Shown here one piece after another: positions 2,110-26,448 of a DNA stretch of 37,405 bases. Every line of letters begins with the position of its first letter. Position 1 is the stretch's first letter. The DNA is from Dehalococcoidales bacterium (lineage in GTDB: Bacteria > Chloroflexota > Dehalococcoidia > Dehalococcoidales > Fen-1064). The position numbers and the translations under genes were made by a program. Under the pieces are notes generated by a model, which saw only the letters and a program-made list of their open reading frames with translations, had not been told where the DNA came from and searched no databases. The stretch spans positions 1,725,629-1,763,033 of the forward strand of contig CP070842.1 of the NCBI GenBank assembly GCA_020342155.1, given 5' to 3'.

Positions 2110-2116
2110 GCGAACT

Positions 2117-3436: not shown

Positions 3437-3445
3437 TATTTTCCA

Positions 3446-4102: not shown

Positions 4103-4136
4103 GGAATCAACCTTCCATAGAAGATAGGTGTACTGG

Positions 4137-5375: not shown

Positions 5376-5377
5376 CT

Positions 5378-6181
5378 GTGAGATGGGAAATAGCTGCCAC
5401 CAGTCTGGCATTCGCGCTTGTTTTTCTACCCCTACTTGCCTGGAAGTGGCGCGTCCAGGTTAAGACAGCTATCGCCGGTGGGGTCATCATTGGAGCACTG
5501 ACCGGATTGATTGTCAGCCAGATAGGTTTCGCCACCGGACTCAATACCGCCGTTCTGATTGTCCTCGAACTACCCCTTATTCTGTTGATAACAGCCGCTG
5601 TCCTGCTCGCCAGGTTTTATCGAGACCCCGAAAGGTCTCCTACCGAAACCGGAAACGTAATCCTTTCTCCTGCCGATGGGACTGTTGTCTATGTAAATAA
5701 AGTAGAAAAGGGGTCGGCCCTGGTTTCGACCAAAGGTGAGAAAAGATTCAGACTGGACGAGATTACGGATACCAATTTACTTCCAGACACAGCCTATCTG
5801 ATTGGGATTGACATGAACATACTCAATGTTCATGTCAATCGAGCCCCCATTGCCGGGAAGACGCTCCTCCGCAAGCGTATTGCCGGACAATTCATGTCAC
5901 TACGCCGGCAGGAATCGGAGACCCTGAACGAAAGGGTCACCACGATTATTGGCAACGGGTCATTCAGCGTGGGTGTCGTTCAGATTGCATCACGCCTCGT
6001 CAGAAAGATTGTCTCGTACGTCAAGGAAGGCGACGACCTTGCGATAGGGCAAAGAATCGGGGCTATCGTATTTGGCTCCCAGGTTGATATCGCTATCCCA
6101 GAATTGGAGAACCTTAGCATAAGTGTTAAGATAGGTGACGAGCTCAAAGCGGGTATTTCTGTGGTAGCTCGATTCGGATAA
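5378..6181 (+). CDS. Phosphatidylserine decarboxylase-like pyruvoyl enzyme with membrane N-terminus
   Basis: This 267-residue protein carries the short-type PSD signatures: FYRDPERSP (80-88), SPADG with catalytic D100, NVHVNRAP with H152, and RIGAIVFGSQVD containing the G233-S234 pair. In this family, that bond is self-cleaved to form the pyruvoyl group. The D, H and S residues are all present, so the enzyme should mature. Hydrophobic stretches at about 5-22, 30-50 and 57-78 give two to three membrane segments. PSD normally converts phosphatidylserine to phosphatidylethanolamine, but the usual partner phosphatidylserine synthase is not adjacent. The position next to an ATP-grasp ligase suggests a different carboxylated substrate, which is inference. 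It starts at GTG 5378, with AGGAGGG about 10 nt upstream inside the preceding gene. Confidence 0.86.
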   Translation: MRWEIAATSLAFALVFLPLLAWKWRVQVKTAIAGGVIIGALTGLIVSQIGFATGLNTAVLIVLELPLILLITAAVLLARFYRDPERSPTETGNVILSPADGTVVYVNKVEKGSALVSTKGEKRFRLDEITDTNLLPDTAYLIGIDMNILNVHVNRAPIAGKTLLRKRIAGQFMSLRRQESETLNERVTTIIGNGSFSVGVVQIASRLVRKIVSYVKEGDDLAIGQRIGAIVFGSQVDIAIPELENLSISVKIGDELKAGISVVARFG

Positions 6182-6246
6182 GAGAAGAAGCCGGACACAG
6201 GGTATTTAAACAGACGAAAACAGAAAAGAGCAAGAAGAGGAAAAGC

Positions 6247-7335
6247 GTGGAAATAAAACGCTGTATTCGCTGCGTTATGCCAGAAAACTACCCCGGAATC
6301 ACTTTTGATGCCGAGGGAGTTTGCAACGTCTGCCGGTATTTCGATGCTAAATGGGGCTCGTTATTAGCCAGTGTTGAAGAGCAACAGCGCTCTGAAGCGA
6401 AACTACGAAAAATTTTCGAGGCAGCCAAGCGGAAGAACCGGCCATATGATGCCCTGATTGGTATCAGTGGCGGCAAGGACAGTTCCTACATGCTCTACCT
6501 CTGCCGCGAGGTCTATGATTTAAATGTTCTCACCTACACCGTGCATAATGGTTTCAGGACCGATGAGGTGAATGCACGCGTGGATAAGCTTGTGAAGGTT
6601 TTCAAAGTACCTCACATTGATTGCTACGAGCCGCTGGCACGCGAACTGGCGGGGGTTTGCATGCGCAAGACCGGTCACTTCTGCTCCATATGTGAACTGC
6701 TGATGTATAATACCACTCAGGTTATTGCCGCCGAGTATAATGTACCACTCATCATCATGGGCAGTTCGAGCCGAACCGAGGCACCTCCTCCCAAGCACCT
6801 CAATCCCTGGGACCCGTGGTATATTAACAACGTCTTGAAGGGTGAGCATTATCAGGAGAGGTTACGCTGCTCCTTCTTTGCCCGTAATTACGTCATCAAG
6901 GCCGGGTTAGCACAGCTCTTGGGCCGGCGCCGTCTGCTGCTCCTGCCTAACTACGTAATCTGGAACGAACACAAGATACATGAGCAATTTCAGAAAGAAC
7001 TTGGCTTCGACTTCGGCGAAGAGCATTCTGATTGCTGGGCCACCAGGATAGCCGGCTACCTTTACGCTAAGAAGTGCGGGGGCACCGCTCCGATGGTAAG
7101 CAAGTACAGCATGTTAATCCGTTCTGGTGAGATGAGCCGGGAGGAAGCAATAAGCAGGTTAGCCAGTCTTGATGTCAGTGAGCCACCGCCTGAGCTGGCC
7201 CGATTTCTTGAGGAATACAATATGACCCGTGAGGAGTTTGACGAAGCCAGCGAGAGAAGCACCGGGGACTATATGAAGGGCATGTCTAAACTTTTCAATA
7301 CACTACGCAAAAGGTTACGGGGTCAGGCAATATGA
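6247..7335 (+). CDS. N-acetyl sugar amidotransferase (WbpG/PseA-like)
   Basis: Diagnostic features are the N-terminal cysteine pairs CIRC (C6, C9) and CNVC (C26, C29), the PP-loop ATP pyrophosphatase motif SGGKDSS (74-80), and KTGHFCSIC. Length (362 residues) and order match the N-acetyl sugar amidotransferase family. WbpG uses ammonia from a HisH/HisF-like partner to turn the 2,3-diacetamido uronic acid ManNAc3NAcA into its acetamidino form, and PseA/LegG-like members act on nonulosonic acids. No HisH/HisF-like genes are in this window. WbpB, WbpD and WbpE homologues at 17406-20280 could supply a related sugar. The start is GTG with AGAGG a few bases upstream. The 65-nt gap before it holds no promoter I recognise. 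Confidence 0.88.
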   Translation: MEIKRCIRCVMPENYPGITFDAEGVCNVCRYFDAKWGSLLASVEEQQRSEAKLRKIFEAAKRKNRPYDALIGISGGKDSSYMLYLCREVYDLNVLTYTVHNGFRTDEVNARVDKLVKVFKVPHIDCYEPLARELAGVCMRKTGHFCSICELLMYNTTQVIAAEYNVPLIIMGSSSRTEAPPPKHLNPWDPWYINNVLKGEHYQERLRCSFFARNYVIKAGLAQLLGRRRLLLLPNYVIWNEHKIHEQFQKELGFDFGEEHSDCWATRIAGYLYAKKCGGTAPMVSKYSMLIRSGEMSREEAISRLASLDVSEPPPELARFLEEYNMTREEFDEASERSTGDYMKGMSKLFNTLRKRLRGQAI

Positions 7336-7345
7336 TGAGAAGTTG

Positions 7346-8146
7346 ATGACTAGACCGCTGAAAATAGTCATACTGACGACCAAGCTGCCGGAGGACATCT
7401 GGCTGATTAATAACATGGCGGATATCTGTAGTATTGAAGGTATTGTCCTTCCCTCCGGAAAACGATACAGAGAATATGGCCTTGCTTACGTATTGAAGAA
7501 AAGGATGCGACGGCTTGGCATCCTCACTTTAGCAAATCAGGCCCTTCTTATCCTGTACAGGAAAGTCGTAGAAAGCCGAAGGGACAAACAAGCCGCAAAG
7601 GAGATCTTCAGTGGTAAGCCCAGCCAATATATAGAGAACAGGGATATCGATATACTCGAGGTAGAAGATATCAACTCCGAAGAGGTGAGAGATTTCATCC
7701 TGTCAAAATCACCTCAACTGGTGGTAGTTAGTGGGGCTCCTCTCCTGAAGACACGAATTCTCAAAGCAGCCGAGGGAAGAATAATTAACCTGCACCCCGG
7801 GTTAGCACCGCAGTACCGTGGTAGATATGGCTCTTTCTGGCCGATATACAACAAGGAACCTGAACTGGTCGGAGTAACTGTTCATTTTATTGACAAAGGC
7901 ATTGATACCGGCGCAATATTGCTTCAGCAGCAGGTTGATTACGACCCCGGTGATACCCTAAAAATAATAACGTACAAACAACACGCAGTAGGTATGACCC
8001 TGCTGGTCAGGTGCCTTTCAGAGTATGATAAGCTGGCGTCGCAGGCCTATCATAAAACAGATTGCCCCAACAATAATTACCTTGCACCAGGGTTGACCCA
8101 CTATTTAAAAGTAAGAAGATGGCTAAGAAGGAAGAGCCATAAATGA
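7346..8146 (+). CDS. Formyltransferase-family protein (sugar N-formyltransferase-like)
   Basis: The catalytic core of the 10-formyltetrahydrofolate formyltransferase fold is visible. IINLHPGLAPQYRG supplies N148 and H150, and VTVHFIDKGIDTGAIL supplies D187 (counting from ATG 7346). The N-terminal part is not the usual methionyl-tRNA formyltransferase nucleotide-binding segment, and the C-terminal tRNA-binding domain is absent. At about 266 residues this is the size of stand-alone formyltransferases that act on amino sugars or small molecules. A TTG at 7343 directly precedes the ATG. ATG 7346 is preferred, with GAGAAG upstream. The 3' end overlaps the next start (ATGA), which indicates coupling. 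An N-formylated amino sugar is the best guess for the product. Confidence 0.8.
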   Translation: MTRPLKIVILTTKLPEDIWLINNMADICSIEGIVLPSGKRYREYGLAYVLKKRMRRLGILTLANQALLILYRKVVESRRDKQAAKEIFSGKPSQYIENRDIDILEVEDINSEEVRDFILSKSPQLVVVSGAPLLKTRILKAAEGRIINLHPGLAPQYRGRYGSFWPIYNKEPELVGVTVHFIDKGIDTGAILLQQQVDYDPGDTLKIITYKQHAVGMTLLVRCLSEYDKLASQAYHKTDCPNNNYLAPGLTHYLKVRRWLRRKSHK

Positions 8147-9600
8147 GATTCCAAAAAGTACTTCTGGTTAATCCAGCGCACCATGTTGAATGGCCAGGAT
8201 TAACGCCTCCTATCGGACCGGGATATTTAACAGAAACACTGAAGTGCAGTGGTATCGAATATGATGTTCTCGATATGAATCTGGGCTATGGTGTGAAACA
8301 ACTACGCCAGAAACTGAACCATTTTCAACCGGATTTGGTCGGTATGGGCATGATTACCAGGGATTACAGAAGATTTTACAGCACACTTGAGGAAATAAAA
8401 CAACATAACAGTAAGATAAAAATCGTAGCCGGCGGCCCGCATGTAACGATTTTTAAAGAGCAGGTACTACAGGAATGTCAAGCCATTGATTATGGCATTA
8501 CTCGTGAAGGTGAAAGAGCCCTTGTCGAATTATGTCAGGATGAAATTGCGGAGGAAAATGTAAAGGGACTCCTCTACCGCGAGAACGGCGACATTATTTA
8601 TGCCGGAGACAGAGAGTTCATCACTGACTTGGACGGAGTCCCCTGGCCCCGGTACGAGAAGTTTGAGTTGGGCAAATATTTTCATGAAATTAGCATACAC
8701 TCCAGTCGGGGCTGTCCATATCAATGTATCTTTTGTGCCCGACACTGCCTGACCCCCATATATCAGGCACGAAGCGCCGAAAATGTCGGCGCCGAACTGG
8801 AATACTGGTACCGAAAGGGCTACCGACAGTTTAACATCGAAGATGATAACTTCAACCTGATTCAGCAACGTGTATACGCAATATGTGACGAAATCGAACG
8901 GCGGCAACTCCGTGGCCTCGTACTGCGCTGCTCGAATGGGATCCGTGCTGACCGGATAGACAGGGATATGCTCGCTCGCATGCGTAAGGTCGGTTTTAAA
9001 TACCTCGCCTTCGGTGTAGACGCAGGAAATGACCGCATGCTGAAAGTCGTCAAAAAAAGCGAAACGATGGAAGACATCGAAAATGGAATTCGGAATGCCT
9101 GCGAGCTGGGGTATAGCATCAAGCTGTTTTTTATCATTGGCTGTCCAACTGAAACGCCTGAGGACGTGGAGGACATGGTAAGGTTAAGCCGGAAATACCC
9201 CATCCAGGAAGTGCATTTCAACAATGTTGTCCCCTATCCGGGAACGGAACTGTACGACTGGATTAAAGACAATGATTACTTTCTTAGACAACCCGATGAA
9301 TACCTAAACAACGCCTCATTCTGGGAAAAGGTCCCCATATTCGAGACACCCGAGATGCCTGAAGCAGAAAGAATCAGGCTAACCAAATATCTGCACGAAG
9401 TGCGTAAAGAAGTGCACCGAGAGGCCATGCGCCGAATACTACAAAGATTCGGGGTAATAGGCACACTGGCAAGCCACATTCTGGCAAACAGTTTTCTAGA
9501 ACAACTATATTACAAGAGCAGGTTCTGGAGAAAAATACTGGAAGGTTTCAGGTACAGGCTGTCCTCAGGTAAGCGTGCCCTCACGAAGACCGAAAACTAG
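8143..9600 (+). CDS. Radical SAM protein with B12-binding-like N-terminal domain
   Basis: This is a 485-residue protein. Residues 1-140 form a cobalamin-binding-like Rossmann domain (KVLLVNPAHHVEW, PPIGPGYLTETL, KIVAGGPHVTIF) that lacks the DxHxxG cobalt-ligand motif. The radical SAM domain follows, with SSRGCPYQCIFCARH (C191, C195, C198) binding the 4Fe-4S cluster and LAFGVDAGNDRML in the SAM barrel. Members perform methylations, ring contractions or other radical C-C chemistry on lipids, sugars and natural products. It is the last gene of the operon. A basic C-terminal tail (RFWRKILEGFRYRLSSGKRALTK) may contact membrane. Which carbon it modifies is unknown. Confidence 0.85.
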   Translation: MRFQKVLLVNPAHHVEWPGLTPPIGPGYLTETLKCSGIEYDVLDMNLGYGVKQLRQKLNHFQPDLVGMGMITRDYRRFYSTLEEIKQHNSKIKIVAGGPHVTIFKEQVLQECQAIDYGITREGERALVELCQDEIAEENVKGLLYRENGDIIYAGDREFITDLDGVPWPRYEKFELGKYFHEISIHSSRGCPYQCIFCARHCLTPIYQARSAENVGAELEYWYRKGYRQFNIEDDNFNLIQQRVYAICDEIERRQLRGLVLRCSNGIRADRIDRDMLARMRKVGFKYLAFGVDAGNDRMLKVVKKSETMEDIENGIRNACELGYSIKLFFIIGCPTETPEDVEDMVRLSRKYPIQEVHFNNVVPYPGTELYDWIKDNDYFLRQPDEYLNNASFWEKVPIFETPEMPEAERIRLTKYLHEVRKEVHREAMRRILQRFGVIGTLASHILANSFLEQLYYKSRFWRKILEGFRYRLSSGKRALTKTEN

Positions 9601-9787: not shown

Positions 9788-11377
9788 CTACTTCACCGGG
9801 ATAGAGAAACTGAAAGTGCTGCCATCCCGAGCCTTGCTCCTGGCCCAGATATGACCGCCGTGAGCTTCCACAATAACCTTACAGATGTGCAATCCAAGAC
9901 CGGCACCCGAAGTAGCACGGGTCAGCCGATTGTTTACCCGATAAAACCGCTCGAATATCCGCTCAATTTCTGATTCCGGTATTCCTATCCCCGAATCAAA
10001 AATATCCACGATAAGACAGGGGTACTGCAATGGGGGTATCGCCTCCGGCCCTCCCTGCAATTCATGTTCTTCACGGGCCTGCCACACCACAGCTTCGATG
10101 TCCCCGCCCTGTGGTGAGTACTTGACAGCATTCATCAGCAGGTTTGTCAGCACCTGCTCAATCTTCTGCCGGTCGACGTTCACCTTGGGTAACGGCCCAG
10201 AAGGACGGAGTTTGATAACGTGCTCCGCAGTCTGGCTCTGTATTTCGAAGACGGTCGCCCGTAGCAATTCCGGCAACGAAGTGGGTTGCAAGAGGAGGTT
10301 CGGAGCAGCCATATCAAGCCTTGAGATGTCCCTGAGATTCTCCAGTAAACGTATTACTCTGTCGGTCGCCGTCTGAATTCCCTGGAGATACTGCTGACTT
10401 TGTTCCTCGGTGATGACCTCAGCTAGCTGCAGCAGAGTGGCAGTATACCCCTTTATTAGAGTGAGTGGAGAGAGCAGTTCATGTGATAGCACAGAAACGG
10501 CATCCGGTTCGGTCCGGTCCTGCCGCTTTTGAGTAGAGGAATCCTTCTGGGTATCAGAATCATAGATAACAGGGATACCGTGTTTATCCTTCTGCATCGG
10601 GGGAGCACTGCCTCCGGTGTTACTCCCAACGACGGCGAAAGGATAAAGTACCCCTTCATCATACTCCTCAGCCTTCCCTCCGCGCTCCTGCGTGGTCAGC
10701 TTTGCCCGGTCATGGTCACTATCTACCGACACGCTATTCTGCGCAGCCTGCACTCCCTCTGGTACCACTGACATCAGCTCGGTCAGGAGCGTCACCGAGG
10801 CAAAGGCCTGCTTCCCGGGCGAAAAAGCCTGCCCCGAGGCAAACATCATTACCCCTGCCAGACCTTCCTCCCGGCGATACCAAGGAACCAGCCACAGAGT
10901 CCTGATACCTTCGCTGTGAGCTACTGTCTGTATCGACTTGAACTGCTTGTTGCCGGGGAGATAAACCATAAGATACGGCTCAGCCTGTTCTATGGCCGTT
11001 GTTATCAGCTGCTCCTCCCGCTCCTTATTAACTAGGAAATCAAGAAATTCCTGGGAAAGATTTGCAACAGCTCCGGGGTAAAGTTGGTGCTGGACAGAAT
11101 CAAAGAGAAAAATAACGCAACTCTCAGCACCTGGAATTAAATGGCCCAGTATTGGGGCTGTTGGTACCGACTGCTCTGCGAGGTGACCGTCTACCGAATG
11201 AGTGCCGATTCTCCCGAGTACGGCCAGTTCGTCCTTACCCAGATGAGCCACCTCATCCAGCACAGCACGTTCGGGACGCTCAAGTCCGGCCTGGCTTTCC
11301 CCTGATATCGAAGCCTCCTCGACACCAGCCCCATCATGGACTTTAGGACCTTCGTTAGGAGGCGGTACCTGCCTCAT
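9788..11377 (-). CDS. Soluble GAF-containing sensor histidine kinase
   Basis: Counted from ATG 11377 it is 529 residues. A GAF-like region spans about 70-205 (FDSVQHQLYPGAV to FASVTLLTELMSVV), followed by a long low-complexity linker. The HisKA box SHELLSPLTLIKGY carries H299. HATPase_c boxes follow: NLLMNAVKYSPQGG (N-box), DIFDSGIGIPESEIERIFERFYR (G1/F) and GAGLGLHICKVIVEAHGG (G2). All catalytic boxes are intact. There is no signal peptide or membrane helix, so it senses a cytoplasmic ligand. ATG 11377 has GAGGAT 6 nt upstream and overlaps the response-regulator gene by 23 nt. An upstream in-frame start at 11425 is less likely. It is convergent with the radical SAM gene, and the 187-bp gap 9601-9787 shows no gene and no strong terminator. 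Confidence 0.9.
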   Translation of the reverse strand: MRQVPPPNEGPKVHDGAGVEEASISGESQAGLERPERAVLDEVAHLGKDELAVLGRIGTHSVDGHLAEQSVPTAPILGHLIPGAESCVIFLFDSVQHQLYPGAVANLSQEFLDFLVNKEREEQLITTAIEQAEPYLMVYLPGNKQFKSIQTVAHSEGIRTLWLVPWYRREEGLAGVMMFASGQAFSPGKQAFASVTLLTELMSVVPEGVQAAQNSVSVDSDHDRAKLTTQERGGKAEEYDEGVLYPFAVVGSNTGGSAPPMQKDKHGIPVIYDSDTQKDSSTQKRQDRTEPDAVSVLSHELLSPLTLIKGYTATLLQLAEVITEEQSQQYLQGIQTATDRVIRLLENLRDISRLDMAAPNLLLQPTSLPELLRATVFEIQSQTAEHVIKLRPSGPLPKVNVDRQKIEQVLTNLLMNAVKYSPQGGDIEAVVWQAREEHELQGGPEAIPPLQYPCLIVDIFDSGIGIPESEIERIFERFYRVNNRLTRATSGAGLGLHICKVIVEAHGGHIWARSKARDGSTFSFSIPVK

Positions 11378-12101
11378 CAATATCCTCGTTATCCTGAACT
11401 GTAGTCTGCCTGCCACGCGCCGCAAAACGGTAGCCCACGCCCCTCTCAGTCAGGATTAACTTCGGCTCGCACGGGTCTTCCTCTATTTTCTGGCGCAGAT
11501 ATCTAATATAAAGCTTAACAAAAGACTTGTCACCGACGTAGTTCGGCCCCCAAACTTTCTGCAGGAGCTGTTCGTGAGTGACTATCCACCCCCGATTCTT
11601 TACCAAGCACGACAGCAGTCTGAACTCCGTCGGTGATAGCTTCACCACTTCGCCCCTGACATAAACCTGGTGGCTCCTCCAGTCTATCTCCACCTCACCA
11701 TCCTGAAAGCTCTTCGACCCTTCCTCTTGTATTTCGATAGTACACCGCCGCAAGATAGCGCCGATTCGGGCCAACAGCTCGGAGAAGTCAAATGGCTTGG
11801 TCATGTAATCATCAGCACCAAGCTCAAACCCTCTCAGTAAATCAGATGTCTCCCCGTTCACGGTGACCATAATAACAGGTATGTCACTCATGTCCCTGAT
11901 GCGATGACATACCTCCCACCCGTCCATCCTGGGCATATTAGCGTCCAGGAGTACCAGGTTAGGACGGCTGCTAAAAACACGACGTAAACCGGCTTTGCCA
12001 TCCTCAGCTGTCATCACCGTGTACCCGGCATTTTGCAGCCACATCTGAGTCAGGCCCAAGAACTCGGTATCGTCGTCGACTACCAGTATCTTCTCTCTCA
12101 T
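11355..12101 (-). CDS. OmpR/PhoB-family response regulator
   Basis: This 248-residue protein has a receiver domain at 1-120 with acidic residues D9-D11, phosphoacceptor D53 (LVLLDANMPRMDG), the switch threonine in VIMVT and the conserved lysine in TKPF (about K102). A C-terminal winged helix (about 135-230) carries LSPTEFRLLSCLVKNRGWIVTHEQLL, VKLYIRYLRQKIEEDP and ILTERGVGYRF. This class activates transcription as head-to-tail dimers on 7-mers repeated every 11 bp. Four such arrays occur in this window, the best one in its own upstream region, so it is the first candidate to bind them. The kinase follows with overlap, and a sigma70-like promoter lies at 12210-12239. A short extra tail (RQTTVQDNEDIDEAGTAS) is not part of the fold. 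Confidence 0.93.
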   Translation of the reverse strand: MREKILVVDDDTEFLGLTQMWLQNAGYTVMTAEDGKAGLRRVFSSRPNLVLLDANMPRMDGWEVCHRIRDMSDIPVIMVTVNGETSDLLRGFELGADDYMTKPFDFSELLARIGAILRRCTIEIQEEGSKSFQDGEVEIDWRSHQVYVRGEVVKLSPTEFRLLSCLVKNRGWIVTHEQLLQKVWGPNYVGDKSFVKLYIRYLRQKIEEDPCEPKLILTERGVGYRFAARGRQTTVQDNEDIDEAGTAS

Positions 12102-12518: not shown

Positions 12519-12574
12519 TTCTAACCTTTTTCTAACTCGCTTCTGACACTGTTCTAACTGTACTTTACTATGAT
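12519..12574 (+). promoter_or_regulatory. Array C: 11-bp periodic direct-repeat promoter of the multidomain regulator
   Basis: Four near-identical 7-mers start at 12519, 12530, 12541 and 12552: TTCTAAC, TTCTAAC, TTCTGAC and TTCTAAC. They are followed by exactly 10 nt (12559-12568) and TATGAT (12569-12574). A weaker fifth unit, CGCAAAC, sits in phase at 12508. Predicted start is near 12581, giving a leader of about 28 nt to GTG 12609. This is the clearest example of the architecture and sits beside the OmpR-type regulator gene. Confidence 0.82.
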
Positions 12575-12608: not shown

Positions 12609-15176
12609 GTGAAAAGGGTGGCTGTAAGCGCAAGTCGAACATCAAGACAGAAGCGAAGAAGGGTCATGGTGGTTGACCATGACCCGGAGATCGTCCGAAT
12701 CCTGGAAGTAAACCTGTCCCACGCCAACCTCGAAGTCATTTCGGCGCGGAGCGGAGCGCAGGCTTTAACCAAGGCCAACAAAGAGCGCCCCGACATAATC
12801 CTTCTGGACGCTGTCCTGCCTGACCAGGAAAGCATGGACATCTGCCGCCGACTGAAAGAATCACCGCAGACTAGCCATATTCCGGTGATAATCATCGGGT
12901 CTGATGGCAAAGGTGAGAACGGGGGAATCGGCATCGGCAGGGCTGACCAGTACATCGCCAAACCCTTCGATCCTCATGAGGTTGTGAAGCTGGTCGAGGC
13001 CTGCTTCAGGCAAATAGAAAGAGACTCAAACACAAGCCCTCTAACCGGACTGCCTAACCAGATACAGGTGAACACCGAGATTACCAGGCTGCTAGAACGG
13101 AACAAGACTTTCACCGCCATTTATATTGATATAGACGACCTTAAGGCTTTTAATAAGGCCTATAGCTTCGACCAGGGCGACCGTGCGATTGAGCTTCTCG
13201 CCGACATAGTGCGTGAAGCGTTGAGGTTATTTGGCAATCCAGATGACCTGGCAGGGCATCTCGGTAGCGATAATTTCATCATTGTCACTTCGATCCAAAA
13301 GGCGAGGGTTCTCTGCCAGAGAATCATCGCTGATTTTGATAGCCGCATCAGAACCCTGTACAACCAGAGAGACCTGGAAAGGGGTTATATTGAGTACGAA
13401 GGCCGATTGGGCGAGATTGAGCAATACCCTATCATGACTATTTCGGCCGCAGCCATTACCAACGAGAGACGAATATTCTACCATCCCCTTCAGGTCAGTG
13501 AGGCTGCCACCGAACTACTGGATTATCTGAGACGTATCCCTGGGAGCAACTACTACCTTGACCGCCGCGAGGATGGTATCGAGACACAGCTGAGCCTGTA
13601 TCACAAGGGTATACCACACGCCTACCGTGAAGAGATGAGAATGCTGCAACGGGTGTTGAACTGGGTTACTTTCCACACTGAAGAACTGGAAACGCCCATC
13701 TCGGCGATACATGAGAGTCTAGAAGCAGTGGGAGTGGCCCCGATGGATGATACCGAGTCCCAGCAAAGGCACAGTCTGGACGTAATCCGAGAGAACGTCG
13801 AGCGTCTTAACGAAGTATTTCGGGAATTCTCCTACCTGACAAGTGGTGAGTGGATTACTGCGGATGCATTCATAGAGGAGGTAAACCTCAGGACTACCTT
13901 TGACTGGATTACGAGGCAGGTACAAAAGCTGGTCGACGAGCGGGGAATTGAGGTTGATATTAAAGGAGTCGATGATATCGGTCCATTGATAATAGATGGC
14001 GGGAGCCTCATTAAAGGCCTGTATTATCTACTCAGGAGCGAGATAAACTCCAGCGCACCCGGTGACCGGCTGCAGGTAAGTGTCACTGAGATGAATGACC
14101 CCTTCATCATCATAGAGGTCACTAACCCTAACCACCACATCCCCCACCGGGACCTGGCCGTACTCTTCCAGGGTCAGATGGACGGGATGGTCCAAAACAG
14201 GCTAGGCAATGACCTTTACCTATCGAAGACACTGGTACAGGGCCTCGGTGGAAAGTTCAGTATCAAGAGTGATAAAAAGGAAGGAACGACCTTCATGATT
14301 GTCATCCCCCGGAGGTGGCAAAGCTCGATAGAAAGGGTAAACGCCCTGCTCGCAGCTGCGGAAACGAGCAGGAAGGAAGCACGAGCCCAGCTCGAAGGCT
14401 TGCGCGACCTTCTGTCATCAACTGCGGCGCAAATGCCATCAGCCGTCGAGGAAAACCTGGAGAACCTCGGGTATAAAATCCAAGAACTCGTAGTACTCTG
14501 CAATCGCTCGCTGTTTTTCGCTGATGAACTCAGCAACCGACTTGACAGCGAACAGGACCGATTACTACAGCAAGAAGTTGAACAGCTTACCACACTGGAG
14601 GCAATGCAAATCTTCAGCCGAGAGATTGCGGCATCGGCACAGATGGGATACCTCTTTGACCCAGAGAGCGCCAGACGCGTGGCCAAGAATGTCTCACTAA
14701 TTGCCAACGAATTCAGATTGTCACGAAGTGAGCGACAGGCCCTACAATATGCCGCCCTGCTCAAAGACATGGGATTTGTATCGTGCCCCGAAGATATGAT
14801 GGAGCAGGCAGTAGCACCCACCCTCGAGGAAGCGATCAATCTGAGCAAGCGTTTCAACATCATGTGGAAGGTACTGTCACGACTCAATTTTCTCTCACCA
14901 GCGCTGGACATCATCTGGCATAGATGTGAGAGGTACGATGGTACCGGCCACCCCTTCGGTGTCAAAGGCGCCAATATCCCGCTGGGAGCCAGAATCTTGG
15001 TAGTCGCGGACACCTTTGACATCATGACAACAGGCCGGTCGTCTCAGGAAACAGTAGCACCTGAAATCGCCGTGCAGAAGCTTGTTGCTGAATCTGGGAA
15101 ACGCTTTGACCCTGACGTGGTGAATGCTTTTCTGCGGGCATGGAGAAAGAAAGAATTTCAAGTTGTCCCAACTTGA
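12609..15176 (+). CDS. Multidomain signalling hub: REC + degenerate GGDEF + degenerate kinase + HD-GYP-like
   Basis: This is an 855-residue soluble protein. REC at about 17-135 keeps its acidic pocket, acceptor D67 (IILLDAVLPD) and K118 (AKPF). A GGDEF-like domain (141-305) starts SPLTGLPNQIQ and has IYIDIDDLKAFN, but the signature is LGSDN (219-222 region), so cyclase activity is unlikely. A histidine-kinase-like section (340-570) reads EELETPISAI where kinases have HELRTPL, so the phosphoacceptor His is Glu358. Its ATP-lid glycines are reduced to GNDLYLSK. A coiled coil spans about 575-665. A C-terminal HD-GYP-like domain (665-845) has LLKDMG for LLHDIG and HRCERYDGTGHP for HHExxDGxGYP. The start is GTG 12609, needed to keep the first REC strand, although its RBS is poor. 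It lies 24 nt upstream of ugd and is probably cotranscribed with it. The most likely role is phosphorylation-controlled scaffold or nucleotide sensor. Confidence 0.82.
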   Translation: MKRVAVSASRTSRQKRRRVMVVDHDPEIVRILEVNLSHANLEVISARSGAQALTKANKERPDIILLDAVLPDQESMDICRRLKESPQTSHIPVIIIGSDGKGENGGIGIGRADQYIAKPFDPHEVVKLVEACFRQIERDSNTSPLTGLPNQIQVNTEITRLLERNKTFTAIYIDIDDLKAFNKAYSFDQGDRAIELLADIVREALRLFGNPDDLAGHLGSDNFIIVTSIQKARVLCQRIIADFDSRIRTLYNQRDLERGYIEYEGRLGEIEQYPIMTISAAAITNERRIFYHPLQVSEAATELLDYLRRIPGSNYYLDRREDGIETQLSLYHKGIPHAYREEMRMLQRVLNWVTFHTEELETPISAIHESLEAVGVAPMDDTESQQRHSLDVIRENVERLNEVFREFSYLTSGEWITADAFIEEVNLRTTFDWITRQVQKLVDERGIEVDIKGVDDIGPLIIDGGSLIKGLYYLLRSEINSSAPGDRLQVSVTEMNDPFIIIEVTNPNHHIPHRDLAVLFQGQMDGMVQNRLGNDLYLSKTLVQGLGGKFSIKSDKKEGTTFMIVIPRRWQSSIERVNALLAAAETSRKEARAQLEGLRDLLSSTAAQMPSAVEENLENLGYKIQELVVLCNRSLFFADELSNRLDSEQDRLLQQEVEQLTTLEAMQIFSREIAASAQMGYLFDPESARRVAKNVSLIANEFRLSRSERQALQYAALLKDMGFVSCPEDMMEQAVAPTLEEAINLSKRFNIMWKVLSRLNFLSPALDIIWHRCERYDGTGHPFGVKGANIPLGARILVVADTFDIMTTGRSSQETVAPEIAVQKLVAESGKRFDPDVVNAFLRAWRKKEFQVVPT

Positions 15177-15200: not shown

Positions 15201-16541
15201 ATGAGCAACATAAGTGTTATTGGAGCCGGATATGTTGGTTTGGTTACAGCCACCTGTTTTGCCGACCTCGGACACAGGGTAAGACTAGTGGAAATCGACA
15301 AAGATAGGGTTACCTGCCTGAAACGTGGGATTCTGCCCATCGTCGAAGAGCAACTGCCCGAGTTGTGGCAGAGTAACTGGGAGGCAGGAAGGCTCAGCGT
15401 AACCAGTGATTACAAGCAGGGGTTGGCGGATTGCGAATTTGCCTTCATAACTGTGGGAACACCATCGGCCGGTAACGGCAAAGCTGAACTAAAATGGGTA
15501 CGCTCGGCTGCCAGGAGTATCGCCGAAGCCGCCAACGGTCCACTTATAATAGTCCTCAAGAGTACGGTTCCGGTGGGCACCGCTGATATCGTGACAAGAG
15601 TAATCGCCCGACATTGCCGAAACGGACACAATTTCCCGGTCGTATCAAATCCCGAATTCCTGCGAGAGGGCGTAGCGGTTTACGACTTCATGCATCCTGA
15701 CCGGGTTGTGGTGGGAGCATTTGACCAGCGTGCCGCCGATGCGGTGGCTGAACTCCACGAACCTCTGGACTCACCAATCATCAAGTGTGACAACAGAACC
15801 GCCGAGATATCCAAGTACGCCTCGAATGTCTTTCTCGCCACCAGACTCAGCTTCATTAACGAAATTGCCTTGCTCTGTGACGAGTATGGCATCGACGTAG
15901 TAGAAGTGGCAGAAATAGTGGGTATGGACCCCCGGTTTGGTACCGGCTATCTGAGCGCCGGTCTGGGCTGGGGAGGCAGCTGTCTACCCAAGGACGTCAA
16001 GGGGCTCATCCATATGGCAAAAAGCCGCAGGGTGTCTGTTCCACTATTACGAGCCGTACAGCAGATAAATCAGAACCAACCTCACCTAGCGATAGAGAAG
16101 CTCTGTAAGCAGGTCGGTTCTCTGGAAGGTAAGACCATCGGCATTCTCGGGCTATCTTTTAAGCCGAATTCCGATGATATACGGGAGGCACGCTCGCTGC
16201 TGGTTATCTCCATTCTTAAGGAGCATGGTTGCCAGATTAAGGCATACGACCCGCTGGCCATGAAGAATACAGCCAAACTCTTCCCCGATGTGACTTATTG
16301 TACCGATGCCTACGAAGTAGCCGCAAGCAGTGATGCCCTGATACTTGTCACCGAGTGGGACGAGTTCAAAGAGCTTAACATGAAAAAGATGGCCTCCTTG
16401 ATGAACTGCCCTGTCCTTATTGATGGACGCAACCTCTATGACGCAGAGGAAATGGCCAAAGCCGGGTTCACATACGATAGTATCGGTCATCATGCTACGG
16501 GGTTAAAGAAACTAGAAGGGGTGTTACTCGGTGGTGCCTAA
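15201..16541 (+). CDS. ugd: UDP-glucose 6-dehydrogenase
   Basis: This cytosolic enzyme oxidises UDP-glucose to UDP-glucuronate with two NAD+. Visible features are the NAD-binding GAGYVG (8-13), VLKSTVPVGT, SNPEFLREGVAVYDFMHPDRVVVG, SKYASNVFLATRLSFINE, the catalytic cysteine C261 in GWGGSCLPKD, and the C-terminal GLSFKPNSDDIREARS. The length of 446 is standard. The SNPEFLREG signature favours UDP-glucose over UDP-N-acetylglucosamine (WbpA-type) dehydrogenases. The ATG is preceded by AGAGAGG. It sits between the regulator and the exopolysaccharide operon and should feed the epimerase at 21590 with UDP-glucuronate for polymer building. Confidence 0.94.
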   Translation: MSNISVIGAGYVGLVTATCFADLGHRVRLVEIDKDRVTCLKRGILPIVEEQLPELWQSNWEAGRLSVTSDYKQGLADCEFAFITVGTPSAGNGKAELKWVRSAARSIAEAANGPLIIVLKSTVPVGTADIVTRVIARHCRNGHNFPVVSNPEFLREGVAVYDFMHPDRVVVGAFDQRAADAVAELHEPLDSPIIKCDNRTAEISKYASNVFLATRLSFINEIALLCDEYGIDVVEVAEIVGMDPRFGTGYLSAGLGWGGSCLPKDVKGLIHMAKSRRVSVPLLRAVQQINQNQPHLAIEKLCKQVGSLEGKTIGILGLSFKPNSDDIREARSLLVISILKEHGCQIKAYDPLAMKNTAKLFPDVTYCTDAYEVAASSDALILVTEWDEFKELNMKKMASLMNCPVLIDGRNLYDAEEMAKAGFTYDSIGHHATGLKKLEGVLLGGA

Positions 16542-16543
16542 GA

Positions 16544-16599
16544 TTCTAACCTGGTATTAACCTGTGTTACACCTATTATTAACTTACAGGCGTTAGGAT
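16544..16599 (+). promoter_or_regulatory. Array D: 11-bp periodic direct-repeat promoter of the exopolysaccharide operon
   Basis: Four 7-mers start at 16544, 16555, 16566 and 16577: TTCTAAC, TATTAAC, GTTACAC and TATTAAC. Exactly 10 nt (16584-16593) precede TAGGAT (16594-16599, 4/6 to TATAAT). The third unit is weak but keeps the final AC. Predicted transcription start falls on or beside the ATG at 16606, giving a leaderless mRNA, which agrees with the poor ribosome-binding site there. Confidence 0.72.
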
Positions 16600-16605
16600 T
16601 ATTAA

Positions 16606-17382
16606 ATGGCGATAGAAAAAGTAACGAAGATAATAAGTAGTGAGCAGAAGGTAGGGCAGGAACAAATTGCTACCACAATCCGAAGAAAACAGGTGGCTGC
16701 TCGTACCAGAAGCTCAGGCTTTAGGATGGGAATCCGAAATCTAAGCAAATACCAACTGTGGAAGGGTATCCTGGACCGCTTAGTCGCCCTGCTAGCGCTG
16801 GTCATCGTGTCTCCCCTTCTCATCCTTATTGCCGTTATTATCAGGCTCGATTCTCCAGGAAATCCCTTTTTCCACCAAGAGCGTGTCGGTAAGGATGGAC
16901 GTAGATTCTTCATCTACAAGTTTCGCACCATGCATCTTGACCATGATGATAGTGAGTATGAAGCTTTCCTGCGGAGATATGTGGGTGGACAAGTTAATGG
17001 TGACGGCCTGAAGGAACAGGCCAAAAAGAAAATCAGACGGCGGGGTCCTGACCTGCGCGTCACACGGTTTGGCACCTTATTACGTAAGACCAACCTGGAC
17101 GAAATCCCTCAACTCCTCAACATACTCAAGGGAGAAATGTCATTTGTCGGCCCTCGTCCTGACATTCCTTTTGCGGTAGCGATGTATAAGGACCATCACT
17201 GGGAGAGGTTTGCCATCACACCGGGCATAACCGGTCTGTGGCAGGTATCTAGACGGAAGAAGATACCATTCGAAGCAATGGTGCGTCTCGATATGGACTA
17301 TATAAAGAAGCAATCACTGTTTCTTGATATAAAAATTATACTATTAACTGTAAGAACTGTCCTCAAGGGAGAGGGTAGTTAG
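16606..17382 (+). CDS. Initiating undecaprenyl-phosphate sugar-1-phosphate transferase
   Basis: This membrane enzyme moves a sugar-1-phosphate from a UDP-sugar to undecaprenyl phosphate, the first step of repeat-unit assembly. It has a basic cytosolic lead of about 50 residues, one hydrophobic re-entrant or membrane segment (about 57-80, RLVALLALVIVSPLLILIAV), then the monoPGT catalytic domain. Visible motifs are FFHQERVGKDGRRFFIYKFRTM, LRKTNLDEIPQLLNILKGEMSFVGPRP and TPGITGLWQV. It lacks the four extra N-terminal helices of WbaP/WcaJ, so it is the short form. An insertion-like basic stretch (KEQAKKKIRRRGPD) precedes RVTRFG. It is the first gene of the operon behind array D, and the start codon coincides with the predicted transcript start. 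Confidence 0.92.
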   Translation: MAIEKVTKIISSEQKVGQEQIATTIRRKQVAARTRSSGFRMGIRNLSKYQLWKGILDRLVALLALVIVSPLLILIAVIIRLDSPGNPFFHQERVGKDGRRFFIYKFRTMHLDHDDSEYEAFLRRYVGGQVNGDGLKEQAKKKIRRRGPDLRVTRFGTLLRKTNLDEIPQLLNILKGEMSFVGPRPDIPFAVAMYKDHHWERFAITPGITGLWQVSRRKKIPFEAMVRLDMDYIKKQSLFLDIKIILLTVRTVLKGEGS

Positions 17383-17405
17383 CGGTAGTGGAAGGAGTAA
17401 AGGCA

Positions 17406-18461
17406 ATGGTTAATGTTGGTGTTATTGGCTGTGGTTACTGGGGCCCGAAGCACGTCAGGAATTTCCACGAGCTAGAGGAGGCTCAGCTGACCATGGTATG
17501 TGATCTGGACGAAGACAGGCTCGAAAGGGTGAAAACCCAATATCCTTATGTAGAGACAGCTCTCAACCCCAAGGACCTCCTCCGAGGCAATGTTGATGCA
17601 GTGGTAATAGCGACGCCAGTCGGTACGCACTATCAATTAGCCAAGAAGGCACTCCTACACGATAAACATGTCCTTATAGAGAAGCCGGTCAGCACAAGCA
17701 GTCGTGAGGTTCTGGACCTTATTGAATTGGCTGATAAGCGAAACCTGATAGTGATGGTAGGACACACCTACGAGTATCATCCCGCTGTGGACTTCCTAAG
17801 AGAACTGGTGCAGAGCGGGGAGTTGGGAGATATTTATAACATTGATGCCTCCAGACTCAATCTGGGCCTGTTCCGACCCGATGCCAACGTCCTCTGGGAC
17901 CTGGCTCCCCACGACATATGCATCGTACTTTCTCTGCTAGATGACGAGCCAATTGAGGTAAGTGCCCGGGGGTCACATCATATAGATCCCCACCTCTGCG
18001 ACGTGGCCTATATCGAATTACTATTCGCCAGTGGGACTATGTGCAACGTTCATGTGAGCTGGCTACACCCTCGCAAGATACGTGAGCTTACCATCGTCGG
18101 TAGTAAAAAGATGGCCGTCTACGACGATGTATCTGAGGCAGAAAAGATACACATCTATGACAAGGGGCTAGCCGTTGCTGCCAGCACAAACAATAATGGC
18201 TTCGCTACATGGCCGCCTAATTACCACTACGGCGATGTCGTTATTCCTTTCATTACCAATGCTGAGCCACTGAAACTGGAGTGTAGCCACTTCATCCAAA
18301 GTATAGTCGAAGGAATAAAGCCAAGGAGCGATGGCCTAGCCGGACTCAGGGTAACCAGCATTTTGGAAGCAGCCAACCGTTCCCTCTTAAATGGGGGCGA
18401 ACGAGAAAAGTTGACCCCAACCAGAACTATCGCAGAGGCTAGTAAAGCGACCATCAGCTGA
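17406..18461 (+). CDS. Gfo/Idh/MocA-family sugar dehydrogenase (WbpB/WlbA-like)
   Basis: The N-terminal Rossmann fold has VGVIGCGYWGPKHVRNF, VVIATPVGTHYQLAKKAL and the family signature EKPVS. The C-terminal alpha/beta domain includes GHTYEYHPAVDFLRELV and DLAPHDICIVLSLL. WbpB-type enzymes oxidise the 3-hydroxyl of UDP-GlcNAc-uronic acid to the 3-keto form. The next two genes encode an acetyltransferase and an aminotransferase in the WbpD/WbpE pattern, which supports that role. I choose ATG 17406 over GTG 17388 because AAGGAG ends 8 nt before the ATG and GCGYWG then sits at a normal distance from the N-terminus. Length is 351 residues. Confidence 0.87.
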   Translation: MVNVGVIGCGYWGPKHVRNFHELEEAQLTMVCDLDEDRLERVKTQYPYVETALNPKDLLRGNVDAVVIATPVGTHYQLAKKALLHDKHVLIEKPVSTSSREVLDLIELADKRNLIVMVGHTYEYHPAVDFLRELVQSGELGDIYNIDASRLNLGLFRPDANVLWDLAPHDICIVLSLLDDEPIEVSARGSHHIDPHLCDVAYIELLFASGTMCNVHVSWLHPRKIRELTIVGSKKMAVYDDVSEAEKIHIYDKGLAVAASTNNNGFATWPPNYHYGDVVIPFITNAEPLKLECSHFIQSIVEGIKPRSDGLAGLRVTSILEAANRSLLNGGEREKLTPTRTIAEASKATIS

Positions 18462-18474
18462 AAATGAGGCATTA

Positions 18475-19143
18475 ATGGGAGATAAAAATCGGTTCCCTAC
18501 AATACTACAGGAAAGCAGCAGTACAGTACGGCTGGGAGAAGGCGCTATCATCGATGACGGGGTAACCCTTGGTTATCCACCGGCCCGCGGCGAGAATCAC
18601 CTCCTAATTATCGGACCTGGGGCTCGCATTCGCTGCGGGACCATCATCTACAGTGGCAGCTGTATTGGACACAATCTGGAAACTGGTCACAATGTAGTTA
18701 TCAGGGAACAGAATATCATCGGAGACGAATTTCGTATTTGGGGTAACTCAGTTATTGACTATGGCTGCCGCATAGGGAACAACGTCAGAATCCATAACCA
18801 GGTCTACGTTTCCCAATTTACGTTCATCGAAGACGATGTCTTTCTGGCTCCCGGTGTTATGCTGGCCAACGACATACACCCCGGCTGCCCCGATGCGGTG
18901 GAATGCATGGAAGGCCCCCGTATTAAAAAGGGAGCCCAAATAGGTATCAATGTCTCCGTGCTACCCCGAGTAGTCATTGGTGAACATGCCGTTATCGGTG
19001 CCGGCAGTGTCGTTACCAAAGACATCCCAGCGGGGGTAGTCGCTTACGGCAATCCAGCCCAGGCTGTGTGCGGGGTAGGAGACCTCACCTGTACCACCGG
19101 CCGCCGGGATAAACCATACAGCCAATTCATAGGGAGAATATAG
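18475..19143 (+). CDS. Left-handed beta-helix (hexapeptide) acetyltransferase, WbpD-like
   Basis: This 222-residue protein is built from repeating hexapeptides (GPGARIRCGTIIYSGSCIGHNLETGHNVVIREQ and later GAQIGINVSVLPRVVIGEHAVIGAGSVVTKDIPAGVVAYGNPAQ), which fold as a left-handed beta-helix and form acetyl-CoA sites between trimer subunits. A likely catalytic histidine lies in ANDIHPGCPDA. In the WbpD role it would acetylate the 3-amino group of UDP-GlcNAc3N-uronate. The start is ATG with GAGG 6 nt upstream, 13 nt after the dehydrogenase stop. Alternative acceptors such as another amino sugar are possible. Confidence 0.88.
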   Translation: MGDKNRFPTILQESSSTVRLGEGAIIDDGVTLGYPPARGENHLLIIGPGARIRCGTIIYSGSCIGHNLETGHNVVIREQNIIGDEFRIWGNSVIDYGCRIGNNVRIHNQVYVSQFTFIEDDVFLAPGVMLANDIHPGCPDAVECMEGPRIKKGAQIGINVSVLPRVVIGEHAVIGAGSVVTKDIPAGVVAYGNPAQAVCGVGDLTCTTGRRDKPYSQFIGRI

Positions 19144-19155
19144 GGAGAACAGAAA

Positions 19156-20280
19156 ATGCGCAGACCTCTAGTGGATCTTAAGAAGCAGTACCAGGGTCTA
19201 AAAGAAGAGATACTGGCCGAGATAGGCCAGGCTCTGGATGGAATGCAACTGTTCCTGGGCAAGAATGTCCAGACATTTGAGGCAGATTTTGCTAATTACT
19301 GCGGTACCGAGTTTGCCATCGGCGTCGGTTCAGGCACGGATGCCCTACACCTGGCCCTTCGCGCCTGTGGGATTGGACCGGGAGATGAGGTAATTACTGT
19401 CTCCAACACCTTCTTCGCCACAGTCGAAGCCATAGCCATTGTCGGTGCCCGACCGGTATTTGTCGACATTGACCCCGATACCTACAACATCGACCCGTCT
19501 CAAATAGAAGGGGCAATAAATAGCAGAACCAAAGCCATCATCCCAGTGCACCTATATGGGCACCCGGCCGACATGGATCCTATCCTGGAGCTGGCTAAGT
19601 CCCACAAGATTAAGGTTATCGAAGATGCCTGTCAGTCTCACGGAGCCGAATACAAGGGACGCCGAACCGGTTCCCTGGGAGATGCTGGCTGCTTCAGTTT
19701 CTACTTCACGAAGAACCTGGGAGCTTATGGTGAGGCTGGCATAATTACAATATCCGACCCGGAGATTGCCAAGCAATGTCGGCTGCTGCGGGACCACGGA
19801 CAGGACCCCAAGTACTATCATTCACTATTTGGTTTCAACGCTCGCCTCGACGAGCTCCAGGCTGCGGTACTGAAGGTAAAACTCCCTCATCTGGACGAAT
19901 GGACAGAAAACAGACGGAGTATTGCCCAGGCCTTCGATGCAGGCCTGCCCGCATCAATAGTAAAACCACAGGAGATGCCATGGGGTAAGCACGTCTACCA
20001 TCTCTACGTGGTGAGGACGCCGTATCGTGACCAGCTGCGAGCTTGGCTGGAGACCAAAGGCATCGGCGCGGGTATGCACTACCCTATCCCTATCCATCTA
20101 CAAAAAGCCTGGCAGGATGCTGGCGGAGGTGACTGCTCTCTACCTATCACTGAGAAAATAACTGAAGAAATACTCTCGCTTCCAATGTACCCGGAACTGA
20201 GTAGCGAGGAAGTGAAATATATCTGTGACTGCGTTCAAGAATTCGCTGAAGCTGAACTGCATGCAGCGGTGGGAGATTAA
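19156..20280 (+). CDS. DegT/DnrJ/EryC1/StrS sugar aminotransferase (WbpE-like)
   Basis: This PLP enzyme transfers an amino group to a keto-sugar nucleotide. Family hallmarks are RRPLVDLKKQY at the N-terminus, GVGSGTDALHLALRA, EDACQSHGA (cofactor-binding Asp), and SFYFTKNLGAYGEAG with the PLP lysine K186. The long internal loop GQDPKYYHSLFGFNARLDELQAA matches sugar aminotransferases. With the flanking WbpB/WbpD-like genes, it should aminate the C3 of a UDP-GlcNAc-derived uronic acid. The ATG lies 12 nt after the acetyltransferase stop, with GGGAG upstream. It is full length at 374 residues. Confidence 0.91.
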   Translation: MRRPLVDLKKQYQGLKEEILAEIGQALDGMQLFLGKNVQTFEADFANYCGTEFAIGVGSGTDALHLALRACGIGPGDEVITVSNTFFATVEAIAIVGARPVFVDIDPDTYNIDPSQIEGAINSRTKAIIPVHLYGHPADMDPILELAKSHKIKVIEDACQSHGAEYKGRRTGSLGDAGCFSFYFTKNLGAYGEAGIITISDPEIAKQCRLLRDHGQDPKYYHSLFGFNARLDELQAAVLKVKLPHLDEWTENRRSIAQAFDAGLPASIVKPQEMPWGKHVYHLYVVRTPYRDQLRAWLETKGIGAGMHYPIPIHLQKAWQDAGGGDCSLPITEKITEEILSLPMYPELSSEEVKYICDCVQEFAEAELHAAVGD

Positions 20281-20336
20281 TTTGTCCCGACTGCTGCAAG
20301 CTGACAAGCAAATAATACATTTTGGGGGTGACTACA

Positions 20337-22567: not shown

Positions 22568-22569
22568 TA

Positions 22570-23634: not shown

Positions 23635-23640
23635 GAAAAC

Positions 23641-26429: not shown

Positions 26430-26448
26430 ATTGTAAAAATAAGCGGTT

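What the first reader, a model, noticed from the sequence alone, without database searches (positions are those of the whole stretch)
12519..12574. A four-promoter regulon defined by 11-bp periodic TTCTAAC repeats and a fixed 10-nt gap to the -10
Four promoters in this window share the same unusual geometry: four 7-mers in exact 11-bp steps, then exactly 10 nt, then a -10-like hexamer (C: TATGAT 12569; B: TATGAT 2104; D: TAGGAT 16594; A: TATCCT 1421-1416, minus strand). My hand count over the 16 core units gives T13 T12 C10 T12 A13 A16 C16. The pattern matches how OmpR/PhoB-class regulators bind direct repeats in place of a -35 box (established for PhoB and PhoP), but TTCTAAC is not a box I can name. 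The regulator at 11355-12101 is the natural candidate. The targets (a FemAB-like gene, a sugar/lipid modification operon, a degenerate signalling hub plus ugd, and a Wzx/Wzy operon) make functional sense together.
Basis: partly seen in the sequence, partly recalled or inferred. Interest (0 to 1): 0.93.

Follow-up and report, generated by a model that had tools for sequence, protein, structure and literature searches.

The report
Four-repeat switch for surface-sugar genes
In an uncultured bacterium, ten predicted promoters, four of them beside predicted surface-polysaccharide genes, carry the same row of four short repeats just upstream of the predicted polymerase site; across related genomes the repeats mostly go together with one regulator gene, whose protein likely binds them and switches the genes on.

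Summary
In detail: four TTCTAAC-type arrays lie at the stated places, with exact 11-bp steps and a 10-nt gap to a -10, and the unit counts are right. It is not chance. The regulon is larger than reported: model R2 finds 11 sites in the 2.3-Mb genome (nine had trained it), none inside a gene, then a score gap; ten have the full geometry. Of 156 genomes in the order, the five with an orthologue (67% identity or more) are the five with most R2 hits (6-11 at E <= 0.05); two of them played no part in the model. In all five, an array lies 416-474 bp upstream of a regulator copy, facing away, before the same receiver-GGDEF-HD hub gene. Predicted targets include a polysaccharide deacetylase, sugar transferase, ugd, glycosyltransferases, a 68-aa protein and a small RNA. 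It works like PhoB (box in place of -35) but is not the Pho regulon. Against: G035 has five hits and no orthologue, and by another measure it has more arrays than orthologue-bearing G121. Binding, activation and signal are untested.

The parts
12519..12574 (+). array C: TTCTAAC TTCTAAC TTCTGAC TTCTAAC, 10 nt, TATGAT; predicted promoter of the hub gene (and likely ugd)
   Evidence: counterparts before the hub gene in G001, G002, G119, G121
2054..2109 (+). array B: TTCTAAC AGATTAC TTCTAAC TTCCAAC, 10 nt, TATGAT; predicted promoter of the polysaccharide-deacetylase operon
   Evidence: counterparts directly before the related gene in G002 and G121
16544..16599 (+). array D: TTCTAAC TATTAAC GTTACAC TATTAAC, 10 nt, TAGGAT; predicted promoter of the sugar-transferase/Wzx/Wzy operon
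   Evidence: kept in G002; an array precedes the Bac_transf gene of G119
1416..1471 (-). array A: TTAAAAC CTCTAAC TCCTAAC TTTAAAC, 10 nt, TATCCT; predicted promoter of the FemAB-like gene
11355..12101 (-). OmpR/PhoB-type response regulator (P0001), predicted reader of the arrays; recognition-helix region GDKSFVKLYIRYLRQKI
   Evidence: Pfam Response_reg and Trans_reg_C; co-occurrence and adjacency
9788..11425 (-). histidine kinase (HisKA + HATPase_c), probable partner; mechanical start, the true start may be later
   Evidence: no obvious membrane segment on reading the translation, not tested by a predictor
12609..15176 (+). hub protein: receiver, degenerate GGDEF, HATPase-like, degenerate HD_5; gene behind array C
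   Evidence: divergent from a regulator orthologue in the five genomes
15201..16541 (+). UDP-glucose/GDP-mannose dehydrogenase (ugd)
   Evidence: the ugd of G121 has an array of its own just upstream
2105..9600 (+). probable operon behind B: polysaccharide deacetylase, GNAT, ATP-grasp, PS-decarboxylase family, one without Pfam match, formyltransferase family, B12-binding radical SAM
16606..37009 (+). probable operon behind D: Bac_transf, GFO/IDH, hexapeptide transferase, DegT, one without Pfam match, epimerase, glycosyltransferases, nucleotidyltransferase, Wzy_C, pyruvyltransferase, DUF2264, Polysacc_synt (Wzx-like), GT2; the last gene (36035-37009) was not scanned
261..1319 (-). FemAB/GNAT-like protein, gene behind array A

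Best explanation
Arrays of four TTCTAAC-type 7-mers in 11-bp steps, ending 10 nt upstream of a -10-like hexamer, stand at ten predicted promoters of this genome (an eleventh is irregular) and are likely bound head to tail by the response regulator at 11355-12101, which would stand in for a -35 element and recruit RNA polymerase. Shown by sequence: the arrays, their geometry, the lack of a -35 consensus, their positions outside genes, their conservation, and their co-occurrence and adjacency with this regulator. Inferred: a cytosolic histidine kinase (9788-11425) phosphorylates the regulator; phosphorylated copies line up on the four repeats, the proximal unit placing one copy next to the sigma subunit; this activates surface-polysaccharide genes (deacetylase, ugd, sugar transferase, Wzx/Wzy), surface proteins, a 68-aa protein, a predicted small RNA, and the divergent hub protein, whose receiver and degenerate GGDEF/HD domains suggest a feedback or second-messenger sensor rather than an enzyme.
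For: (1) Offset found without using the -10 to score: a unit matrix from the four window sites finds 40 arrays outside the window in 395 kb of fetched loci; 27 of 40 have a -10-like hexamer at offset 10 and 32 of 40 at 10 or 11, against a mean of 2.15 of 40 (maximum 5) at 40 upstream control offsets. The loci had been fetched through step-11 patterns or models, the later ones including the -10, so this is not fully independent; the own-genome stretches (4 of 4) came from a two-unit pattern without -10. (2) No -35: best match to TTGACA at 16-18 nt is 0-3 of 6 in the 19 model sites. (3) 11 genome sites at E <= 0.0026, then a gap to 0.34 (nine had trained the model), none inside a gene, while 6.75% of the window is noncoding. 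(4) Co-occurrence: 5 of 156 genomes of the order have an orthologue at 67-100% identity (next 51%); the same five have 11, 8, 6, 10 and 6 hits at E <= 0.05, G035 has 5, the rest 2 or fewer. Fisher p = 1.4e-9; without the three genomes that supplied the model 8.6e-5, or 2.6e-4 if the cut is set at 5 so that G035 counts against. The cut was chosen after seeing the counts and the genomes are related, so these are guides. (5) Adjacency: an array starts 418, 419, 449, 416 and 474 bp upstream of a copy in the five genomes; 5 of 7 orthologue loci against 0 of 40 other Trans_reg_C places within 2 kb (p 1.4e-5). (6) All seven copies share GDKSFVKLY[I/V]RYLR[Q/R]KI; none of the other 29 regulators of these genomes that I read does (36 of 47 read). 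(7) Same kinds of target across two families: hub 5 of 5, deacetylase, sugar transferase, ugd.
Against: G035 (another family) has five R2 hits, one before the same TreT-type glycosyltransferase gene, yet no orthologue (best 39%); G050 has one very strong site (E = 3.6e-8) and best regulator 40%. The separation depends on the measure: several counted R2 hits are partial, and by the 56-column matrix at 20 or more in the fetched loci G121 has 3 places and G035 4 (G119 9); the hits at G121:C68 and G001:C16 show nothing there. Two further copies of the regulator (G001:C5, G002:C50) have no array beside them (best unit scores 4.2 and 4.9). 6 of 15 unit-only arrays in G119 and 2 of 7 in G121 have no -10 at 10 or 11 nt. 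One of the 11 own-genome sites (2037444) has irregular spacing and no -10 at 10 nt. Searches scored only part of the first-look candidates (36 per genome). There are no binding, transcript-start or expression data.
Confidence: 0.82

Rival explanations
1. The arrays are real promoter elements, but a different regulator (another OmpR-family paralogue) reads them; P0001 is only a neighbour.
For: G035 and G050 carry arrays without a P0001 orthologue, and contig C50 of G035 has another OmpR-family regulator about 1.4 kb from its array. Boxes of this family resemble one another: TTGTAAC repeats lie just behind the regulator at 1555673.
Against: Orthologue-bearing genomes lead in R2 hits, and adjacency is 5 of 7 against 0 of 40. 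By reading the helix regions, none of the three regulators of G050 matches any of the seven of this genome.
Confidence: 0.12
2. The arrays are operators at which the regulator represses these promoters.
For: A protein over the -35 region can block polymerase; conservation alone does not give the sign.
Against: No -35 consensus exists for a repressor to cover (0-3 of 6 in 19 sites), and the position is that of known activator sites: in E. coli the pho box usually lies near the -10, substituting the -35 (PMC4971064, passage seen).
Confidence: 0.08
3. This is the phosphate-starvation (Pho) regulon of the organism.
For: Same kind of box: 11-nt direct-repeat units of 7 well conserved + 4 less conserved nt (PMC4415409, passage seen). 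Sugar-polymer genes with ugd recall the Pho-controlled teichuronic-acid operon of Bacillus (recalled).
Against: No PhoU match at E <= 0.001 in G000, G001, G002; in G119 and G121, which have PhoU, no R2 hit at E <= 0.05 lies on the PhoU contigs C55 and C78. P0001 scores 183.5 against the NCBIfam PhoB cut-off 296.2. The box differs from CTGTCAT and GTTCACC. pst genes were not searched.
Confidence: 0.02
4. Chance or a low-complexity repeat.
For: None found.
Against: 0 arrays in 200 resampled windows and in 1.11 Mb of loci of other bacteria; only step 11 in the window; present before the same genes in another family.
Confidence: 0.005

Closest known systems
PhoB and the pho box (Escherichia coli and others)
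   Same: OmpR/PhoB-type regulator; 11-nt direct-repeat units of 7 conserved + 4 loose nt; box near the -10 in place of the -35 (PMC4415409 and PMC4971064, passages seen).
   Different: Unit TTCTAAC, not CTGTCAT; four units rather than the two that define the pho box; polysaccharide targets; no PhoU match in the genus; below the PhoB cut-off.
Streptomyces PhoP direct-repeat units (GTTCACC)
   Same: Direct-repeat units of the same kind; operators there vary in number and order of units (PMC4415409, passage seen).
   Different: Different unit and targets; four units are the usual number here.
PmrA and the pmra box
   Same: Two DNA-binding domains bind head to tail, with the -35 element at half-site 1 (PMC4660055, passages seen).
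   Different: Two half-sites there; different regulator subgroup.
XrtA/PEP-CTERM exopolysaccharide loci
   Same: FemAB-like gene and polysaccharide deacetylase near sugar-transferase genes; TIGR03019 and TIGR03006 are hit.
   Different: Both far below the curated cut-offs (115.3 of 260.35; 37.6 of 276.2).

Membership tests
OmpR/PhoB-family response regulator (P0001) | receiver domain plus winged-helix Trans_reg_C above Pfam cut-offs | tested here: met
   103.4 of 30.2 bits and 89.4 of 26.2 bits
OmpR/PhoB-family response regulator (P0001) | binds direct repeats in about 11-bp steps | not testable with these tools
   indirect only: arrays co-occur with and lie beside the gene
PhoB / Pho regulon | NCBIfam PhoB equivalog score | tested here: not met
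   183.5 bits, cut-off 296.2
PhoB / Pho regulon | PhoU present and Pho genes among targets | tested here: not met
   no PhoU match in G000, G001, G002; no R2 hit on the PhoU contigs of G119 and G121 (the PhoU control rang in 13 of 14 genomes); pst genes not searched
PhoB / Pho regulon | 11-nt repeats close before the -10, no -35 | tested here: met
   (works like it; not membership)
KdpE | NCBIfam KdpE equivalog score | tested here: not met
   177.1 of 325, although a source names some relatives KdpE
MtrA | NCBIfam MtrA equivalog score | tested here: not met
   215.8 of 300, the best equivalog hit
small RNA gene (1460852-, own genome) | promoter, conserved short stretch, terminator, no ORF | tested here: inconclusive
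   array + TATGAT; 81% identical in G001; strong 3' hairpin, z -7.26; weak U-run, not called by the terminator scan; no Rfam match; transcript not testable

The most novel reading that the evidence does not exclude
A previously undescribed global surface-polymer switch of Dehalococcoidia: a regulator that uses four TTCTAAC repeats as its -35 substitute drives, in one regulon, an entire Wzx/Wzy polysaccharide factory, a pseudo-enzyme c-di-GMP-type hub facing its own gene, and a small RNA whose conserved single-stranded AGAUUCCUCCU would pair with Shine-Dalgarno sequences and so set translation to the new programme.
Probability: 0.25. Interest if true: 0.75.

Novelty: new member of a known kind. 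Interest (0 to 1): 0.6.

Why it matters
It pairs a DNA box, a regulator and a set of targets in a lineage known here only from genomes, from sequence alone. The pair makes surface-polysaccharide control in Dehalococcoidia testable in vitro and in a laboratory host. The four-unit array is a clean case for asking how many regulator copies a promoter without -35 needs, and a shared helix with a shared box adds a data point to the OmpR-family recognition code.

Tried and rejected
Pho regulon: rejected. Named relatives of P0001: 80 loci kept, best 46% identity, mostly other phyla; no regulon comparison possible, used only as background DNA. The first nine-site alignment put site 1460852 out of register, so it was left out of model R2 and later served as a held-out hit (E = 1.5e-4). 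R1 hit 996232 (E 0.55) is not among the R2 hits and was dropped. TTGTAAC repeats (1556004, 1924405) look like a paralogous box and were not counted. R1 hits on G035:C38 and C66 gave no full array and were dropped. Rfam: only a c-di-GMP-II riboswitch and tRNAs in the six sources scanned, none at the arrays. Duplex energies of the small RNA with six start regions (-6.7 to -15.1 kcal/mol) single out no target. Literature: the listings, and of the bare string TTCTAAC (94 papers, 20 titles seen), show no description of this box or regulon in the titles and abstract beginnings; no wider claim of absence is made.

Full report
WHAT WAS CLAIMED AND CHECKED. The four arrays are in the sequence exactly as described, and the hand-made count is right. 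A unit-only matrix finds four arrays in the window at step 11 and none at the other steps from 7 to 18; none in 200 resampled windows; none in 1.11 Mb of loci of other bacteria. No -35 consensus stands at 16-18 nt in any of 19 sites (0-3 of 6). In those 19 sites the first and the last unit are the most conserved (mean 1.45 and 1.57 bits per column), the second least (0.92); the 10-nt gap is nearly free (0.25) (the sites include orthologous pairs, so the bits are inflated).

THE GENOME. The window lies at 1725629-1763033 of one 2,295,886-base contig. A pattern of two units only already found arrays elsewhere. Model R1, built from the four window sites, gave seven further hits at E <= 0.83, the best at 2.5e-4 (150 of 240 candidates scored). 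Model R2, from 19 gapless sites of three same-genus genomes (nine own, five each from G001 and G002), gives 11 sites at E <= 0.0026 and then nothing until 0.34 (150 of 320 scored). Nine of the 11 had trained the model; 1460797 (E 1.5e-4) and 2037444 (0.0026) had not. They are A-D, and: 14981(-), before a glyoxalase-like gene; 186480(+), before a 774-aa DUF11 protein; 856064(+), before a TreT-type glycosyltransferase; 1460797(-), before a predicted small RNA; 1821352(+), before an HMGL-like gene; 2037444(-), irregular, with no clear gene behind it; 2152511(+), before a 68-aa protein. None lies inside an ORF of the lists; B and 1821352 overlap by 5 and 2 bases the first ATG that the mechanical caller picks. 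Ten of the 11 have a -10-like hexamer (4 or 5 of 6) at 10 nt; 2037444 does not.

RELATIVES. R1 finds the syntenic counterparts of B, C and D in G002 and further sites in G001. R2 over 156 genomes of the order (stricter filters, 36 candidates scored per genome; 28 of 156 have a hit at E <= 0.05) ranks, outside the genus, G119 (10 hits) and G121 (6), both of another family, then G035 (5); the rest have 2 or fewer, among them one very strong hit in G050 (3.6e-8). A 56-column matrix of the training sites scores 0 places at 20 or more in 0.96 Mb of loci of other bacteria, and 19 distinct places at 20 or more in the later-fetched loci of relatives and the re-scanned G035, G050 and G028 loci: G119 9, G035 4, G121 3, G002, G050 and G028 one each. 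So by that measure G035 is not below G121. Among 40 arrays picked by units alone, 27 have a -10 at offset 10 and 32 at 10 or 11; control mean 2.15 of 40. At 10 or 11: own 4 of 4, G001 5 of 5, G002 5 of 5, G119 9 of 15, G121 5 of 7, G035 3 of 3, G050 1 of 1. The hub promoters of G119 and G121 use 11 nt. These loci were fetched through step-11 searches, so the step control (40 at step 11; 0 or 1 at steps 8-10 and 12-14) is not independent; the window's is.

THE REGULATOR. The genome has seven Trans_reg_C places, one of them below the cut-off. Across the 156 genomes, orthologues of P0001 at 67-100% identity occur in five; the next has 51%. Those are the five genomes with most R2 hits. Fisher's test gives 1.4e-9 for 156 genomes; 8.6e-5 without the three that supplied the model; 2.6e-4 if G035 is counted against. 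The seven copies share the recognition-helix region; of 47 Trans_reg_C places in the five genomes I read 36, and none of the other 29 has it. In each of the five genomes an array starts 416-474 bp upstream of a copy and points towards the hub gene; within 2 kb of the 40 other places there is no R2 hit. Two extra copies (G001:C5, G002:C50) have no array.

TARGETS. Genes behind arrays: the hub (five of five genomes); the polysaccharide deacetylase (own, G002, G121; in G119 an array lies about 790 bp upstream); the sugar transferase (own, G002, G119); ugd (own, behind the hub; its own array in G121); GFO/IDH and, as second gene, a nucleotidyltransferase in G119; an epimerase in G121; the TreT-type glycosyltransferase (own, G001, G002, G035); the small YWVGR protein followed by a zinc-ribbon-like peptide (own, G001, G002); Ig-like-domain proteins (own DUF11, G002 SdrD_B); a T2SSE/PilT-like ATPase (G001). 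By eye on the alignment, the hub's receiver aspartate is kept in 4 of 5 sequences; its GGDEF reads GSDNF, GSDNF, GGDNF, GGDNF and NGNKF; its HD motif reads KD four times and DD once. By recalled rules of these families it is probably not an active cyclase or phosphodiesterase.

SMALL RNA. Behind the site at 1460852(-) there is no gene close by but a stretch of about 90 nt: a 5' hairpin, a single-stranded AGAUUCCUCCUUUCGACGA, and a long GC-rich hairpin (-39.9 kcal/mol, z -7.26). Array, -10, 5' hairpin and AGATTCCTCCT are kept in G001 (81% over 158 nt; alignment); of the other eight genomes searched, G002 included, none has such a match. G035 has an unrelated two-hairpin stretch with a T run directly behind its C20 array. 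Neither is known to be transcribed.

PLACE AND NAME. No name is given for the genome. Relatives of the hub and regulator with a source name are mostly called Dehalococcoidia, Dehalococcoidales or Chloroflexi bacterium, so Dehalococcoidia is the likely class (inference).

WHAT STAYS OPEN. The regulator of G035 and G050; the sign and the signal; whether all four units are occupied; whether the kinase is the partner. Mechanistically this is PhoB-like activation by tandem binding next to sigma (PMC4415409, PMC4660055, PMC4971064; passages seen). As a kind of system it is known; for this box, regulon and regulator I found no description in the searches named.

Noticed in passing
L031 7853-7703 (own genome 1460852-1460702, minus strand): Array followed by a predicted small RNA with a conserved single-stranded CCUCC stretch and a strong 3' hairpin; 81% identical in G001.
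   Followed up: partly
window 2104-2119; L195 16124-16109; L306 16707-16692: The deacetylase promoters of the own genome, G002 and G121 place an in-frame GTG, ATG and GTG eight nt after the -10, so the mRNA is predicted to be leaderless; D may be too in the own genome (ATG seven nt after the -10), but not in G002.
   Followed up: partly
own genome 1556004 (L017/L047) and 1924405 (L023/L048): Similar arrays of TTGTAAC units, one about 100 bp behind another OmpR-family regulator (1555673): perhaps a paralogous box with its own reader.
   Followed up: no
L202 16861 (-), L197 4871 (-), L035 511 (+): A protein of about 68 aa without Pfam match (..QKAFEQGLEQGYWVGR..), followed by a zinc-ribbon-like peptide (below Pfam cut-offs), sits behind an array in the three same-genus genomes.
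   Followed up: partly
L031 684-767 (+), own genome about 1453683: A c-di-GMP-II riboswitch (67.7 bits, gathering 53.5), so c-di-GMP signalling probably exists in this genome.
   Followed up: no
L205 1176-1256 (G035): Short two-hairpin stretch with a T run directly behind an array: a second, unrelated small-RNA candidate (z -6.5).
   Followed up: partly
L028 6037 (-) and L032 6353 (+): Two nearly identical arrays with similar flanks in the own genome before different genes (glyoxalase-like, HMGL-like): looks like a duplicated promoter segment.
   Followed up: no
L309 4544 (-) (G121): A weak array (matrix 15.6) precedes two tandem genes whose N-terminus (KGITG.ETAIILIAFV) resembles archaellin or type-IV-pilin-like proteins (recalled resemblance).
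   Followed up: no
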